From a virus: DNA of 64,000 nucleotides. Both the position numbers and the translations under genes were made by a program. This document shows positions 14,044 through 21,699 of this stretch, one piece after another. The notes below the pieces were generated by a model. It worked only from the letters and a program-made list of their open reading frames with translations. It was not told the origin of the DNA and made no database searches. The stretch spans positions 1 through 64,000 of IMG/VR virus record IMGVR_UViG_3300033153_008203, one strand, 5' to 3'. The number at the start of each line of letters is the position of its first letter. Within the stretch, counting starts at the first letter, position 1.

Positions 14044-15237
14044 ATGGCTGAAGAGAGTAAGGTTACAGGAGAGGAAACATCAGAAGTTACTGGAGAGGTA
14101 GCTGCTGAAGAGAAGAAGGTAGAAACAAAACCAACAGATAATCCTAAGAAAATTAGATTTAGATGTGAAACAGAAGGAAAGTTCACACTACTTAGTAACA
14201 CAGTAGATAGTGATGGAACAAATGCTCTTGCTGGATCAAAGGTAATAATCAACAGCAAGATAAAAACTAAGCTTGACCCACAAGAAGGCGAAATATTTTC
14301 TTGTACTAAGCTTAAGCATAGAGCAAAAACAAATGCATTTTATGGTAGTGGAAATATAAAGAAATGCGAAGATGCACCAAAGAAAGAACTGAGCATGTTT
14401 GAAATTCTAAGCAGGGCTCCAAAACCAGAAGGCTTTATAGTGACTGACGCTATTTGGACCCTGTTACTGAGAAATATTTTGCGTGGCAAGCACACAGTGC
14501 TTGTTGGCCCAACAGGCTCAGGAAAGACAGAGCTTGTAGCACATGCAGCTGAAACAATTGAGTATGCTTTTCACTCATACAATCTTGGAAATGCAACAGA
14601 CCCAAGAAGCAAGCTAATAGGTTCTATGAATCTTGTTATGGATGAAAAGGGCGAATGTAACGTAACTAGCTTTGTAGAAGCAAGATTTGTAAAAGATATT
14701 CAAACAGATAAGACAGTTATTCTTCTAGATGAAATCAATAGAAGTAATCCTGAAGTAAACAATATGCTTCTTGCTCTGCTTGATGGTCAAGGATATCTTG
14801 AACTTGATGAGCATCCAGAGCTACCTGTTATACACAAGAGTAAGTCATGTGTTCTGGTTGGAACTGCAAACATCGGTGACGAATATGTAGGCACAAACAT
14901 CCTTGATAGGGCATTTAAGGATAGGGTGTTCATGATAGAGATTGATTACCTGAGCAAAGACGAAGAGAAAGCTCTTCTTATAGAACGTACAAACATAGAC
15001 GAAGAAAGCGCCGATATGATCGCTGAATTTGCGGAAACTTGCAGGGCTATGTGGAAAAGAGATGAGCTTGGAACACCTATATCTACAAGGATGACTTTGG
15101 AAACAGGTTATCTAATGGCAGACGGCTTTGACTTTAACAAGAGTGTTGAAGCAACTATACTTCCGCATTTCGATAACGATGGTACTGCATCATCAGATGC
15201 TACAAAGATCAAGCAGGCCATGCAAAAAAAGGGCTAA
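14044..15237 (+). CDS. MoxR/CobS-like AAA+ ATPase
   Basis: 397 residues. A Glu/Lys-rich and beta-rich N-terminal domain (1-115) precedes the AAA+ module: Walker A GPTGSGKTE near residue 154, Walker B VILLDEINRSNPEVNN near 225, and sensor ATANIGDEYVG-type sequence near 280. These are hallmarks of the MoxR/CobS/NorQ group, which act with a von Willebrand A partner to load metals or activate enzymes. The next gene, 3 bases on, encodes such a VWA protein. The target is unknown; a link with the B12-dependent ribonucleotide reductase at 24.6 kb is conceivable but unproved. Confidence 0.85.
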   Translation: MAEESKVTGEETSEVTGEVAAEEKKVETKPTDNPKKIRFRCETEGKFTLLSNTVDSDGTNALAGSKVIINSKIKTKLDPQEGEIFSCTKLKHRAKTNAFYGSGNIKKCEDAPKKELSMFEILSRAPKPEGFIVTDAIWTLLLRNILRGKHTVLVGPTGSGKTELVAHAAETIEYAFHSYNLGNATDPRSKLIGSMNLVMDEKGECNVTSFVEARFVKDIQTDKTVILLDEINRSNPEVNNMLLALLDGQGYLELDEHPELPVIHKSKSCVLVGTANIGDEYVGTNILDRAFKDRVFMIEIDYLSKDEEKALLIERTNIDEESADMIAEFAETCRAMWKRDELGTPISTRMTLETGYLMADGFDFNKSVEATILPHFDNDGTASSDATKIKQAMQKKG

Positions 15238-15240
15238 TAA

Positions 15241-17316
15241 ATGAGCGAATATAAAAAGCTAACTGATTTAGCTAAAAAGGACGATGATTTTTCTTGGATA
15301 GACGACTATCTAGAAGAGACTCGTCACTCTGATTCAGAACCAGGACATAGCGGGTATCAAGGTACCCGCTCCATGTTCGATGAGAACTATGAACGTGGTG
15401 AAAGAAAAACATATGATCGTGATGATCATAGATCTCCTTCTTATGGAGGTCATGGAACCTACAAAGGCTATGGAACCTACGGAAGCGGCAAAGCATGGTG
15501 GGAAAGAGACAGAGTAGAAAGGAAGCCAACGTATTACGGTGGTGGCTCAGGGTCTGTATTTGGTAATACATTTACTACTGGATATTCATCAGGATCAAGT
15601 GACATAAAGAACTCGAAAGAGTTACTTGATGCTAAAGCTTTTGTTTCTAATTTGGTAACTATTCATGATCCATTAACTGCAAAGCGTGTAACAACACAGG
15701 TTGATGGGACAGCAAGAGGAATAGGGAATATTTTCTCTGATAAGTCTACAATTATACCTCTTCTACCAGAGATAAGTACTAAATTCAGTCTTGCATTTAA
15801 TAAAAGACTTGACATTCTTAGTGGACAAGGGCTAATGACGTCTACAATTAGTCATTCCAAACTAAAGGATAAGATTGTCAAAGAGAATGCTACTAAAATA
15901 AAAGAATACAGTAAGAAGCAAGCTGATCCTGAGACTGTTCATAAGACAGTAAAAGTAATAGCGTCGATACTAAGCGAACAATACATAGAAGAAGACATTA
16001 TAAGTAATAGCCCAGGATATGAAAATTATATAAAAAGCTTTAGAGACTATTACTATAATGAAAGATACGAAGATGGGATAAAACAACATAGAAGCTTTTT
16101 ACCAATAGACTTATTATATGTTAAGCTTAGGGATCCAGAGAAAGTAAAAGGACTACTTGAGCTTGCACGTTCAAGAGTTGGATCAGAAGAGTATGGTGTT
16201 TTAATCAAGGTTAACGAAGCTATTGAGAAATTGCTTAGACATATGAAGCCTGGAACAAAGAACATCTTTGGGAATGCTATAGCAATATTAATGACTCTTC
16301 TCTCTTCTTGCGTAAAAGATATCGAAGATGTAGCAAGTGCTGAAGCTGCACTTATGAATGCTGCTGCTTCTGAAGGAGCAATGGAAGGCATAGGTATGCA
16401 TCGCAACTTAACTGAAATGATGGACTCAAGAAGTTTAAGTAAAGCAGAAAGCAGTAGCTTAAGTGCTCTTGCACAGCTAGAAGAACATGATTATGTAAGT
16501 TATACAATGAAAGATCCTACTATTAATGGTCATAGTCATTATAAGAATTTTGAAATGAATTTCTATACTATGAAAGGAAACGAAACAGCTTATGCTAATA
16601 TCAGAAAAGGTATGGATGCATATGTAGCTCCTTTGAAGAGAATGATGAAATTCAGGGACTTCGTGAAGAAAACAACATTGACATCTCAGAAAAGAGGCAA
16701 GCTTGACAAAGGTAAACTTGCTATGGTAAACAGTACTGATAGAATATATAAGCAGACATTTACTGATAAGTCAAGTAATGTTTCTATCTGTCTATTGGTT
16801 GATGAATCAGGAAGTATGAATGGACCAGGAATAACAGCAGCTAAGGCACTTGCTTGTTTGTTTTCAGAAGCATTTACGGGTTCTAAAACAGTTGATCTAC
16901 ATGTGTATGGTCATACTGCTCAAGAACGGTATAGCGATGGTCCAGTATGTACTATCAGAAAATATCCAACGAAACAATCTATATCGGATATAAAGGCAAG
17001 ATGTCAGAATCTAGATGGCGCAGCTATATATGGCACTGCACAGGAATTTTTAAAGGTAGCTACAGGTGAACAAAAACTGATGATAATCCTATCCGATGGA
17101 AATCCATATGGATCTGGATATTCAGGTTCATCAGCAGTCAACCATACTAAGGAATGTGTTGACGCTGTTGAGAAGCTTGGGATTATTCCAATGCAGGTTG
17201 CTATAGCTAGCCATGTAAATAGCGACAGAATGTTTAAAAGATGGTTTAAGTTTACTGATATGAATAAGTTTATTCCCGAGATGGGAAAGATGATTAAAGT
17301 CCTACTTAAGGGCTAG
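15241..17316 (+). CDS. VWA-domain partner of the MoxR-like ATPase (CobT-like)
   Basis: 691 residues. The N-terminal 110 residues are low-complexity, rich in Gly, Tyr, Ser and His, and presumably disordered. A long helical middle region follows. A C-terminal VWA domain (about 510-691) has the MIDAS motif DESGSMNG near residue 520 and IILSDGNP near 613. The architecture matches CobT/NorD-type proteins that couple to a MoxR-class ATPase, encoded immediately upstream. It would form a chelatase-like or enzyme-activating complex in the cytoplasm. Confidence 0.85.
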   Translation: MSEYKKLTDLAKKDDDFSWIDDYLEETRHSDSEPGHSGYQGTRSMFDENYERGERKTYDRDDHRSPSYGGHGTYKGYGTYGSGKAWWERDRVERKPTYYGGGSGSVFGNTFTTGYSSGSSDIKNSKELLDAKAFVSNLVTIHDPLTAKRVTTQVDGTARGIGNIFSDKSTIIPLLPEISTKFSLAFNKRLDILSGQGLMTSTISHSKLKDKIVKENATKIKEYSKKQADPETVHKTVKVIASILSEQYIEEDIISNSPGYENYIKSFRDYYYNERYEDGIKQHRSFLPIDLLYVKLRDPEKVKGLLELARSRVGSEEYGVLIKVNEAIEKLLRHMKPGTKNIFGNAIAILMTLLSSCVKDIEDVASAEAALMNAAASEGAMEGIGMHRNLTEMMDSRSLSKAESSSLSALAQLEEHDYVSYTMKDPTINGHSHYKNFEMNFYTMKGNETAYANIRKGMDAYVAPLKRMMKFRDFVKKTTLTSQKRGKLDKGKLAMVNSTDRIYKQTFTDKSSNVSICLLVDESGSMNGPGITAAKALACLFSEAFTGSKTVDLHVYGHTAQERYSDGPVCTIRKYPTKQSISDIKARCQNLDGAAIYGTAQEFLKVATGEQKLMIILSDGNPYGSGYSGSSAVNHTKECVDAVEKLGIIPMQVAIASHVNSDRMFKRWFKFTDMNKFIPEMGKMIKVLLKG

Positions 17317-19344: not shown

Positions 19345-19689
19345 ATGGATAAAAAAGACATCATAGAAGGAGCAATGTACTCAGTCATATCATCATTTGA
19401 ACTTGACGGAGAAACATTTAATCCTGGTCATGAATTTAAGATCTTAAAAATAGTAAAGCATGCAACAAACATCTCATATCTTTCTGTAGAATGGGAGCAT
19501 GTACTTGTACATGGACATGACGCTGAAAGTCTTGGAAAAGAAAAGCATTGCTGGGACATTGACCAAGATTATATAATGGATAATTGCAAGTTAACTACTG
19601 CTCGTACTGAAACTAAAGAAGAGCCAGTTGTTATTCTAAAAAGATTTACTAAGAAAGAATTTTTAGAGACACTGAAATCAGTTGTATGA
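19345..19689 (+). CDS. Hypothetical protein
   Basis: 114 residues. A beta-rich core (SVISSFELDGETFNPGHEFK) recalls small SH3-like or beta-barrel phage proteins; the C-terminal 20 residues form a basic helix. It overlaps the HNH gene at 19686 (ATGA). Confidence 0.55.
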   Translation: MDKKDIIEGAMYSVISSFELDGETFNPGHEFKILKIVKHATNISYLSVEWEHVLVHGHDAESLGKEKHCWDIDQDYIMDNCKLTTARTETKEEPVVILKRFTKKEFLETLKSVV

Positions 19690-20132
19690 AACTTGAGATA
19701 GAACTGGTTCCAGAGACAGCATGGTACAGTAATCTCAGAACAATACTGGTAGCATCTGGATGGAATAAAGTAAGACAAAAGGTTCTTGCTAGAGCAAATG
19801 ACCACTGTGAGATATGTGATGCTAAGGTCAAGAGATTAGAGTGCCATGAGATATGGAACTATGATGATGAAACTTTAGTTCAATCATTAGTAGATGTTAA
19901 AGCTCTATGCAGGAACTGTCATAGAATAAAGCACTTCGGACTGTCTCTAATGAAGTCACAGAAGGGACAAGCAAACATACAAACACTTGAGGATCATTTT
20001 ACAAGAGTTAATGAGTGTACGTATGCTGAATTTAAAGATCATGTAAACGAATCATTTAGAGTTCACGGAGCGAGAAGCAGGGAGGAATGGAGTATAGACA
20101 TATCTAACGTAGCACTATATTTAGACGATTAA
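19686..20132 (+). CDS. HNH nuclease-like protein
   Basis: 148 residues. CEICDAKVKRLECHEIWNYD at about residues 43-62, followed by ALCRNCHRIKHFG near 79-91, gives two CxxC zinc ligands and the HE...N/D...H framework of the HNH/zinc fold. It is unlike the homing HNH genes elsewhere in the window and lies in frame with the operon, overlapping the previous gene. It ends only 3 bases before the retron-like non-coding element, so a link with that element is possible. DNA cleavage or only DNA binding cannot be decided. Confidence 0.72.
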   Translation: MKLEIELVPETAWYSNLRTILVASGWNKVRQKVLARANDHCEICDAKVKRLECHEIWNYDDETLVQSLVDVKALCRNCHRIKHFGLSLMKSQKGQANIQTLEDHFTRVNECTYAEFKDHVNESFRVHGARSREEWSIDISNVALYLDD

Positions 20133-20135
20133 ATA

Positions 20136-20142
20136 CTGACAA
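20136..20142 (+). repeat. Left arm of terminal inverted repeat (a1-like)
   Basis: CTGACAA here is the exact reverse complement of TTGTCAG at 20508-20514. In retrons such a pair forms the base of the msr-msd transcript. A second short pairing, AAGTC at 20141-20145 with GACTT at 20495-20499, could extend or alternate with it. Confidence 0.65.
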
Positions 20143-20333
20143 GTCATATATGCCTATTGCTATCGGTAGGTGCTATATATTCCATTCTACGAATGGAGCC
20201 CCGCAACTGAATGTGTTCACGCGCTGGCTAAGTTTACAGTGTGTAACAATTGCGCCTGATCCACCAGGTAGAATCATGAGTTACGGGGACCCGGTGTATT
20301 ACTAACATCGAACAAGAGAGCTGGAGACCAGGG

Positions 20334-20480
20334 ACCGGTTATGTGCACAGCTGCAGTAGAAGAGCTCGGTTCCGCCACGCGTCGTATGCATCGATACACT
20401 TCGAGGCGGTCTGCGGGCCCGGACAAATATTGCTGCGCCTGGCGGAACAATGATTATACAAAGCTCTAGAGGATCCATGG
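20334..20480 (+). repeat. Array of thirteen different 6-bp palindromes
   Basis: Complete 6-bp palindromes, each occurring once: ACCGGT 20334, GTGCAC 20343, CAGCTG 20348, CTGCAG 20351, GAGCTC 20362, ACGCGT 20377, ATGCAT 20386, ATCGAT 20390, GGGCCC 20415, AATATT 20426, TCTAGA 20465, GGATCC 20471, CCATGG 20475. Four extend to 8 bp (20342-20349, 20414-20421, 20464-20471, 20474-20481). At one per 64 positions about 2.3 would be expected in 147 bp. Several overlap or abut. All are recognition sites of known type II restriction enzymes. The 5' half of the element shows no such excess. The array lies where the DNA-copied (msd) part of a retron would be. Confidence 0.85.
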
Positions 20481-20507
20481 ACCCTAAACACTTAGACTTT
20501 TAAATAG

Positions 20508-20514
20508 TTGTCAG
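20508..20514 (+). repeat. Right arm of terminal inverted repeat (a2-like), touching the RT ribosome site
   Basis: TTGTCAG pairs with 20136-20142. Its last two bases are also the first two of AGGAGAG, the ribosome site of the reverse transcriptase, so folding of the element could limit RT translation. Confidence 0.6.
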
Positions 20515-20521
20515 GAGAGAG

Positions 20522-21268
20522 ATGAGTTATAATATTTTTAAAATACCGAAGAGAGACGGTAAATTTAGAACGATTGAAGAACCATGTTATGAACTAAAAT
20601 TAAGACAAAACAGATTATTAATTGAACTTGAATCCTCACTCTGGATATCAGAGCATGCTCATGCATTTATTCAAGACAAGAGTATTGTAACAATGGCGGA
20701 GCCACACATTAATAAAGAATTTGTTGCATGCTGTGACATAAAGGATTTCTTTCCTTCTATTACAGCAGAGAAATTAGTTAGGATAACACCACGAACAACA
20801 TGGACACATGCAGACATAGCTACATATGATTTCGAAGATGGCAAAGGCAGAAGATTACCACAAGGAGCACCTACATCACCAATCTTATCTAATGCGTACT
20901 TGTATCATTTAGATCTTCACATGTCAGCAGCAGCAAACATAAGAGATTGTTCTTATACTAGGTATGCAGATGATCTTGTATTCTCTGGATCTAGTAAAAC
21001 CAAGATGAGATTCTTATTGGACTATGCAAAAGAAATACTTAAAGATGAGTTTCAATTAAACATAAACAATAAGAAAACTAGAATTATGCATCGATCACAA
21101 AGACAAATAGTATGTGGCGTTGTAGTAAATGAAAAATTAAATATACCGAAAGAGAAAAGAAAAAATCTTAGAGCTGAGATATACCAACAAAGAGCGAACG
21201 AGAAACTCAGACGTGACACAATAGGAAGGAGAGCCTTCCATAGTATGGTAAGAGGAGAAGCAACATGA
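20522..21268 (+). CDS. Retron-like reverse transcriptase
   Basis: 248 residues behind AGGAGAG. RT motifs in order: KIPKRDGKFRTIEEP (fingers), MAEPH at 58-62 in the place of the retron NAxxH, catalytic Asp in DIKDFFPSI (D72), LPQGAPTSP (114-120), YTRYADDLVFSG with YADD 148-151, and VCG 197-199 in the place of the retron VTG, followed by VVVNEKLNIPKEKRKNLRA. QGxxxSP separates it from diversity-generating RTs. It is short: the N-terminal extension and most of the thumb of typical retron RTs (about 300 residues) are missing. It presumably copies the adjacent non-coding element. The stop overlaps the YqeY-like start (ATGA). Confidence 0.85.
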   Translation: MSYNIFKIPKRDGKFRTIEEPCYELKLRQNRLLIELESSLWISEHAHAFIQDKSIVTMAEPHINKEFVACCDIKDFFPSITAEKLVRITPRTTWTHADIATYDFEDGKGRRLPQGAPTSPILSNAYLYHLDLHMSAAANIRDCSYTRYADDLVFSGSSKTKMRFLLDYAKEILKDEFQLNINNKKTRIMHRSQRQIVCGVVVNEKLNIPKEKRKNLRAEIYQQRANEKLRRDTIGRRAFHSMVRGEAT

Positions 21269-21699
21269 GTCTACTGATAAATATAAAAAATGACATAATG
21301 CTTTTAAGGAAAGCTAAAAGTAAATTTGCACTAAGTATAGTTACTACACTTTGTGGTGAGGCAGCTATGGTTGGTAAGAGTAAAGGTAATAGAGAATCTA
21401 CTGATGCTGAAGTAGTTCAGGTAGTTAAGAAATTTATTAAGAACATACAAGAGACTATGCTTAAGGTTAAGCTTTCTGAATCACAAATATATGATATGGA
21501 ATATGAGGTAGAGATATTATCAAAATATTTGCCTGAACAATTAACTGCTGATGAGCTTACTACATTAATAACTAAACTAATAAGTGATGAGTGTTATTCT
21601 CTTCCTAAAGATATGGGTAAGGTAATGAAACATTTATCTATTGAGTATGCTGGTAGGTTTGATGGTAAGGTTGCTAGCGATATAATTAAAAGAATGTAA
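21265..21699 (+). CDS. GatB/YqeY-like protein
   Basis: 144 residues, all helical. The family pattern is clear: LSIVTTLCGEAA near the N-terminus, E-x-E-I-L-S-K-Y-L-P-E-Q-L (residues 82-94), and DMGKVMKHLSIEYAGRFDGK near the C-terminus. YqeY resembles the tail domain of the GatB amidotransferase subunit and may bind tRNA; its role is not well defined. The start overlaps the RT stop, so RT and YqeY would be made from one message. Phage YqeY genes occur elsewhere, so it may be only a neighbour of the retron-like unit. Confidence 0.82.
   Translation: MSLLINIKNDIMLLRKAKSKFALSIVTTLCGEAAMVGKSKGNRESTDAEVVQVVKKFIKNIQETMLKVKLSESQIYDMEYEVEILSKYLPEQLTADELTTLITKLISDECYSLPKDMGKVMKHLSIEYAGRFDGKVASDIIKRM

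What the first reader, a model, noticed from the sequence alone, without database searches (positions are those of the whole stretch)
20334..20480. Restriction-site-like palindrome array in the part of the element that would become DNA
Thirteen different 6-bp palindromes, none repeated, occur in 147 bp; about 2.3 would be expected by chance at one per 64 positions. Four extend to 8 bp. Phage genomes usually avoid such sites, so the concentration looks selected. The array lies in the 3' half of the element, where retron msd DNA is templated, while the 5' half shows no excess. Hypotheses: (1) a decoy DNA that binds or saturates host restriction enzymes, (2) a bait or sponge for methyltransferases, (3) self-annealing palindromes that let copies pair into duplexes. 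The site diversity favours a target that is itself diverse, such as restriction-modification enzymes.
Basis: partly seen in the sequence, partly recalled or inferred. Interest (0 to 1): 0.96.

Follow-up and report, generated by a model that had tools for sequence, protein, structure and literature searches.

The report
Natural restriction-site catalogues in phage retrons
Several unrelated large bacterial viruses carry, next to a reverse-transcriptase gene, a short non-coding stretch packed with many different six-letter restriction-enzyme target sequences, like the cloning site of a laboratory plasmid, which most likely serves as a DNA decoy against the restriction enzymes that bacteria use to destroy viral DNA.

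Summary
Window 20334-20480 holds 13 different 6-bp palindromes (about 3 expected), the maximum of the whole 145-kb phage contig. It lies in the a2-proximal part of a 379-nt retron-type ncRNA directly upstream of an intact retron-fold RT gene (20522-21268). The nearest homologue (RT 58% identical, same upstream gene) has an unalignable element that is again its genome's maximum. A blind scan of other retron-RT loci found eight more arrays in large phages, in a second RT clade, at one syntenic place 2.4-3.5 kb downstream of the RT or directly upstream of it. None lies elsewhere in about 2.4 Mb of phage DNA. Pooled: 197 sites versus 47 expected. The unit is exactly 6 bp: extension to 8 bp is at chance. 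Sites repeat less often than chance, and 2-GC palindromes without a known type II enzyme are depleted. This fits diverse type II restriction-modification enzymes as targets and argues against self-annealing. Reverse transcription, double-strandedness of the product and anti-restriction activity are inferred. The best reading is an RT-made DNA decoy against type II systems. No precedent was found in the papers searched.

The parts
20334..20480 (.). palindrome array: 13 different 6-bp palindromes (AgeI, ApaLI, PvuII, PstI, SacI, MluI, NsiI, ClaI, ApaI, SspI, XbaI, BamHI, NcoI type sites)
   Evidence: direct scan and shuffles
20136..20514 (+). putative retron-type ncRNA (a1 to a2)
   Evidence: a1/a2 complementarity plus structured 5' half (z -2.87) and conserved ends with L026
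20136..20142 (+). a1 arm CTGACAA, followed directly by the candidate branching G at 20143
   Evidence: 7-nt perfect complement of a2 (P 0.08 alone)
20508..20514 (+). a2 arm TTGTCAG; reverse transcription would start just 5' of it
   Evidence: AGTTGTC conserved in L026
20151..20173 (+). msr hairpin 1 (loop ..AT then CGG), form conserved in L026, L206 and L291
   Evidence: folds and sequence
20182..20196 (+). msr hairpin 2 CCATTC-TAC-GAATGG, form conserved in L026 (TTTTACCC-TGC-GGGTAAAA)
20199..20288 (+). third structured domain, absent from L026
20369..20448 (+). only long inverted repeat in the array (arms 20369-20381 and 20436-20448)
20522..21268 (+). retron-type reverse transcriptase, 248 aa, YADD intact, lacks the usual N-terminal extension; VCG in place of VTG, MAEPH in place of NAxxH
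   Evidence: Pfam RVT_1, PADLOC retron RT models, Foldseek to retron Ec86 RT
19686..20132 (+). upstream 148-aa HNH-like ORF (Cx2C, ECH, Cx2C), also directly upstream in L026; no Pfam family
21265..21699 (+). YqeY-like ORF overlapping the RT stop; not next to the RT in L026, so probably not an effector

Best explanation
The element is a phage-borne retron-type cassette whose reverse-transcribed part is a catalogue of type II restriction sites. Proposed mechanism: the phage transcribes the ncRNA; a1 pairs with a2; the RT primes at the G after a1 and copies the a2-proximal half into many DNA copies. The copies carry a dozen or more different 6-bp palindromes. Once duplex (by second-strand synthesis, or locally by strand-strand pairing at the palindromes) they occupy or divert host type II restriction enzymes, and possibly their methyltransferases, while the phage genome is vulnerable. 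Variety rather than copy number of any one site is what selection keeps, because the phage cannot know which enzymes the next host has. Shown here: the arrays, their exact 6-bp unit, their low repetition, their recurrence in two RT clades, their linkage to retron RTs, and, for several of them, their place inside retron-like units. Inferred: reverse transcription, duplex form, binding by restriction-modification enzymes, and benefit to the phage.
For: 13 sites vs 3.0 expected in the window, 10 vs 2.0 in the unalignable L026 element; each is the maximum of its genome. Eight further arrays were found by a scan that did not use homology of the array. In the ten array genomes the strongest array of the contig is always within 3.6 kb of the RT, with none comparable elsewhere, and 13 other retron-RT phage contigs have none at log10P <= -3.1. 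Pooled ten arrays: 197 sites vs 47.3 (z 22.7); 6-to-8-bp extension 53/197, the chance rate; 4-bp palindromes outside 6-bp ones not enriched. Distinct sites 182 vs 162 expected, P<0.0003. Palindromes with two G/C and no known type II enzyme: 1 vs 8.4 expected, P=0.0012 (enzyme list from own knowledge, fixed). a1/a2 with G directly after a1 flank several arrays (pooled P=0.0016). RT model matches retron Ec86 RT. No phage DNA methyltransferase of three Pfam families in G000 or G001.
Against: Retron msDNA is normally single-stranded, and most type II enzymes need duplex DNA. An RNA:DNA hybrid is a poor competitor at least for AvaII (PMC7337904). Unprotected duplex decoys would be cut and released. 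Array sites are not those avoided in the phage genomes. Arrays are missing in close RT relatives (L206, L291, L027). No host, restriction-modification content or cDNA data exist. a1/a2 is weak for single elements and was not found for G009 or as a perfect stem in L026. Four-letter sites, used by many restriction enzymes, are not enriched.
Confidence: 0.52

Rival explanations
1. The array is a bait or reporter rather than a competitive decoy: its DNA is methylated or cut by host restriction-modification enzymes and the altered DNA-RNA-RT complex then triggers something (for example titration of methyltransferase or S-adenosylmethionine, or release of a partner), as defence retrons use their msDNA as a sensor.
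For: Same site evidence as the decoy. Known defence retrons sense changes to their DNA (own knowledge of retron biology).
Against: No conserved effector next to the RT: the downstream genes differ between window and L026.
Confidence: 0.17
2. Self-annealing: palindromes let RNA or cDNA copies pair with each other into duplexes or dimers.
For: Palindromes pair intermolecularly by nature, and the msd has no excess intramolecular fold (z -0.04 and -1.15).
Against: Selection for pairing should favour longer and stronger palindromes, but extension to 8 bp is at chance (53/197). Palindromes are not preferentially unpaired. Diversity and low repetition are not needed.
Confidence: 0.08
3. The array acts in the phage genome itself, for example as a sacrificial or recombinogenic cleavage site or landing pad, and its nearness to the RT is incidental.
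For: In clade B the array is 2.4-3.5 kb from the RT, and between the two lies a GP88-like gene.
Against: Each listed site occurs 2 to 107 times elsewhere in the phage genome, so one extra copy adds nothing. In window, L026 and L207 the array is directly upstream of the RT. Several clade B arrays sit between a1/a2 arms.
Confidence: 0.1
4. Mutational by-product: template switching during reverse transcription plus recombination of cDNA back into the genome turns near-palindromes into perfect ones.
For: RTs and foldback synthesis can perfect quasi-palindromes (own knowledge).
Against: This would give spaced or longer inverted repeats. The excess is almost wholly at spacer 0 and 6 bp. It does not predict low repetition or depletion of sites without enzymes.
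Confidence: 0.05
5. Chance, laboratory polylinker contamination or misassembly.
For: It looks like a cloning site.
Against: Ten different arrays in contigs of different metagenome accessions, none alike in sequence, at conserved places.
Confidence: 0.02

Closest known systems
Retrons (RT + msr-msd ncRNA, e.g. Ec86/Eco1, Eco7, Ec78, Ec83)
   Same: RT of the same fold and family; ncRNA beside the RT with terminal complementary arms and a G directly after a1; structured msr-like 5' half.
   Different: In large phages, no effector; the msd is a restriction-site array without a dominant hairpin (z -0.04) where sibling units have strong hairpins (z -6 to -7); clade A RTs lack the N-terminal extension and have VCG instead of VTG.
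Phage anti-restriction by protein decoy (Ocr, ArdA DNA mimics) [own knowledge]
   Same: Proposed outcome: restriction enzymes are occupied by something other than phage DNA.
   Different: Here the proposed decoy is nucleic acid carrying the real sites, aimed at type II enzymes rather than type I.
Defence-associated RTs that make defined DNA (DRT2, DRT9, DRT3)
   Same: An RT makes DNA whose sequence matters.
   Different: Those are bacterial defence systems with repetitive or concatemeric products; this is phage-borne with a non-repeating catalogue of palindromes.
Plasmid multiple cloning sites
   Same: Tightly packed, overlapping, mostly non-repeated 6-bp type II sites.
   Different: Natural, and different in every phage that carries one.

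Membership tests
Retron | RT of the retron/retron-like clade with catalytic YxDD | tested here: met
   PADLOC retron RT models E down to 3e-67, Pfam RVT_1, Foldseek top hits retron Ec86, Ec78, Ec83 and Eco7 RTs; YADD present
Retron | RT motifs NAxxH and VTG | tested here: not met
   Window RT has MAEPH and VCG; clade B array RTs keep VTG or ITG
Retron | ncRNA with a1/a2 complementary ends and priming G directly after a1 | tested here: inconclusive
   Window CTGACAA|G...TTGTCAG (P 0.08 alone); five of eight clade B arrays have 10-13 bp arms (G-U pairs allowed) with G after a1; pooled P 0.0016; not found for G009 or as a perfect stem in L026
Retron | msd forms a long stable hairpin | tested here: not met
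   z -0.04 (window) and -1.15 (L026), against -6.3 to -7.3 for L028 units and L206 unit 2
Retron | multicopy branched RNA-linked DNA is made | not testable with these tools
   needs cDNA from infected cells
Retron | effector gene or domain in the operon (defence retrons) | tested here: not met
   RT stands alone; neighbouring downstream genes differ between window (YqeY-like) and L026 (DUF2695)
Type II restriction-site decoy | enrichment limited to the site length of type II enzymes (6 bp), uninterrupted | tested here: met
   4-to-6 extension 64% vs 25%, 6-to-8 27% vs 28% background; spacer 0 z 22.7, other spacers weak
Type II restriction-site decoy | variety of sites kept above chance; sites without enzymes under-represented | tested here: met
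   182 vs 162 distinct (P<0.0003); 2-GC orphan palindromes 1 vs 8.4 (P 0.0012); no depletion in the A/T-only class
Type II restriction-site decoy | product is double-stranded and bound by restriction-modification enzymes; phage protected | not testable with these tools
   needs bench work

The most novel reading that the evidence does not exclude
Large phages in at least two lineages have evolved RT-templated multicopy DNA catalogues of type II restriction sites: a nucleic-acid anti-restriction system that diverts diverse host enzymes by offering them their own recognition sequences.
Probability: 0.5. Interest if true: 0.97.

Novelty: categorically new. Interest (0 to 1): 0.94.

Why it matters
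A natural, evolving polylinker has not been described in the papers found. If the reading holds, it gives phages a nucleic-acid counter to type II restriction, a function for effector-less retron-type RTs in phage genomes, and a record, written by evolution, of which restriction specificities phages meet. Even if the decoy idea fails, ten different arrays with an exact 6-bp unit beside retron-type RTs demand an explanation.

Tried and rejected
Chance and composition: rejected by shuffles, Markov expectations and genome-wide ranks. A general retron property: rejected, since upstream regions of 168 retron-type RT loci are not enriched in general, and bacterial RT loci show no non-coding arrays. 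Hairpin by-product: rejected, since spaced dyads are not enriched in the window and folding z is about 0. Kissing loops: rejected, since sites are not preferentially unpaired. Array sites specially avoided in the phage genome: not so (P 0.78 and 0.73). Rfam and tRNA searches: nothing. Cultured relatives: none by DNA or close protein match; the query was by mistake a splice of two glycosyltransferases, so it carries little weight. The search for related loci with single proteins found little; profiles worked. Motif search for the msr start found only L026 again. Alignment of the window and L026 arrays gives no homology beyond the ends. A mild excess of 5-bp interrupted dyads (z 4) was left uninterpreted.

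Full report
WHAT IS THERE. The window belongs to a 145,069-base IMG/VR virus record. Between an HNH-like ORF (19686-20132) and a 248-aa reverse transcriptase (20522-21268) lies 389 bp of non-coding DNA. Its 3' half, 20334-20480, carries 13 different 6-bp palindromes, exactly as described. Shuffles that keep dinucleotides give 3.0; none of 20,000 reaches 13. The 5' half has 5 against 3.6 expected. Because the boundaries were picked by eye, I ranked every 147-bp window: this one is the maximum of the 64-kb window and of the whole 145-kb contig, with 13 distinct sites against 8 for the next.

THE UNIT IS SIX BASE PAIRS. Of 4-bp palindromes in the stretch, 13 of 18 extend to 6 bp, against 25.6% in the 64 kb. 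Of the 6-bp ones, 4 of 13 extend to 8 bp, against 28%, which is chance. Three-base arms with spacers of 1 to 15 show no excess in the window. This is the signature of targets read as uninterrupted 6-bp palindromes and not of hairpins or of long self-complementary segments.

THE CARRIER. The ORF is a retron-type RT by Pfam, PADLOC and structure: the AlphaFold model (pLDDT 72.8, last 55 residues poor) matches retron Ec86 RT best, E 4e-17, then Eco7, Ec78 and Ec83. It keeps YADD but lacks the usual N-terminal extension, and has MAEPH for NAxxH and VCG for VTG. The non-coding element starts with CTGACAA followed by G (20143) and ends with TTGTCAG (20508-20514), the arrangement of retron a1, priming G and a2. 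Two hairpins follow a1, conserved in form in L026. The 5' half is more structured than shuffles (z -2.9 in the window, -2.75 in L026), while the array part is not (z -0.04, -1.15). In sibling units of related phages the corresponding part is a strong hairpin (z -6.3 to -7.3 in the three L028 units and L206 unit 2). So the array stands where a retron's msd stands and replaces its hairpin. By analogy with Ec86 the DNA copy would begin just 5' of a2 and run through the array; this is inference.

THE FIRST INDEPENDENT TEST. The nearest RT (58%, IMG/VR 3300033388_005265, locus L026) has the same upstream gene and a 216-nt element. The ends align but the middle does not. That middle again carries 10 palindromes (9 different), four of them head to tail (ACCGGT TACGTA TCCGGA TGGCCA): full element 10 vs 2.98, P 4.5e-4; 3' part 10 vs 2.0. 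Its 147-bp maximum is the maximum of that 119-kb genome too. The property is kept while the sequence is not.

THE SECOND TEST: RECURRENCE. Scanning all loci fetched because they encode retron-type RTs (2.7 Mb) for local excess of different 6-bp palindromes, without using array homology, put non-coding arrays of viral contigs at the top. I then read whole contigs. In G000, G001, G006, G007, G008, G009, G010, G011, G012 and G013 the strongest array of the contig lies within 3.6 kb of the retron RT, and no comparable array lies elsewhere. Thirteen further retron-RT phage contigs (1.29 Mb) have none at log10P <= -3.1; G016 has a weaker one, rank 1 of 210 kb, at the syntenic place. The ten were noticed near RTs, so the near-RT position is partly by selection; the absence elsewhere is not. 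Two further contigs (G014, G015) gave only weak or ambiguous signals and were left out.

TWO LINEAGES. A tree of 101 RTs places the array RTs in two supported clades: window + L026 (100/98), nested among L206, L027 and L291, which have two or more ordinary units and no array; and eight of a 16-row clade (98/95). In the second clade the array is mostly in the gap between a GP88-like gene and a glycosyltransferase, 2.4-3.5 kb downstream of the RT, but in L207 directly upstream of the RT. Flanking complementary arms followed directly by G are found around G008, G010, G011, G012 and G013, with different sequences in each: CCCAATTTACA|G / TGTAAATTGGG, GATGTTCGTA|G / TACGAACATC, GCGCAAGCTCACA|G / TGTGAGCTTGTGT, ATTTTTCATA|G / TATGAAAAAT, AGCCAGCTCGCA|G / TGCGAGTTGGTT. 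Each alone is weak; pooled P is 0.0016.

WHAT IS SELECTED. Ten arrays, 2,801 bp: 197 sites against 47.3 expected, z 22.7; 53 of 197 extend to 8 bp (background 28%); 4-bp palindromes outside 6-bp ones are not enriched. Within arrays, sites repeat less than chance: 182 distinct against 161.6 (P<0.0003) or 169.4 under the simpler null (P 0.0045). For a single array 'none repeated' is not significant. Eight of the 64 palindromes have no type II enzyme known to me (list from memory, fixed before the pooled test). They make up 11 of 208 sites against 28 expected. By G+C class against each phage's own genome the depletion is in the 2-GC class, 1 against 8.4, P 0.0012; the A/T-only class shows none. 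Short interrupted dyads show a small excess. Together this points at many different type II specificities as the selecting agent.

MECHANISM. Most likely an RT-made DNA decoy against type II restriction-modification. The weak step is duplex form. Retron DNA is usually single-stranded, and each site occurs once, so the molecule cannot fold the sites into duplex by itself. An RNA:DNA hybrid is doubtful: only a minority of enzymes cut such hybrids, and AvaII binds them much more weakly than dsDNA (PMC7337904). Second-strand synthesis or transient pairing of two copies at the palindromes is needed. Neither phage carries a DNA methyltransferase of the three main Pfam families, so it has no evident protection of that kind. 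The phages do not avoid 6-bp palindromes strongly (O/E 0.95) and the array's sites are not specially avoided, which neither supports nor excludes the decoy.

STATUS OF EACH STEP. Shown: array, unit length, recurrence, RT linkage, position within retron-like units for several arrays. Likely: reverse transcription (intact RT, position). Inferred: multicopy duplex DNA, enzyme binding, benefit. Unknown: host, expression.

NOVELTY. Searches of the open PMC library found no description of restriction-site arrays in retrons or of phage retrons used against restriction; subscription papers and preprints were mostly not searchable. The machinery is retron-type; the array as a kind of genetic element has no known counterpart I could find. 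I rate the feature categorically new while saying plainly that its function is untested.

Noticed in passing
L027:3679-4490, L028:4440-4940, L206:2526-2973, L291:2673-2980: Related phage retron RTs are preceded by two to four or more tandem msr-msd-like units with different hairpins (L028 shares a 64-nt repeat in three units), i.e. multi-template retron cassettes.
   Followed up: partly
window 14044-17316; L027:1751-3043; L291:321-2662; L206:59-2053: MoxR-type ATPase and/or VWA/DUF2201 metallopeptidase-like genes sit upstream of the retron RT in window, L027, L206 and L291; L206's copy holds a LAGLIDADG domain.
   Followed up: partly
L209/G010 array start; L240/G007 before the array: G010 has six CCCGGG sites at short regular spacing and G007 four 30-bp repeats each with CCTAGG just 5' of the non-repeating array, the only strong repetition seen.
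   Followed up: no
G009, G010, G012, G013, G016-G018 downstream of the RT: Conserved order RT - GP88-like gene - long non-coding gap (with array) - glycosyltransferase in uncultivated phages; G017 keeps the gap but with little array.
   Followed up: partly
L106/L107: MAG contigs with a short RT related to the window's and a single upstream unit whose first hairpin (GCTATGCTG-TTT-CGGCATAGC) resembles the Ec86 msr hairpin as I recall it.
   Followed up: no
pooled arrays: Mild excess of 5-bp interrupted dyads (CGNCG, CCNGG, CTNAG; z about 4), perhaps further restriction sites.
   Followed up: partly
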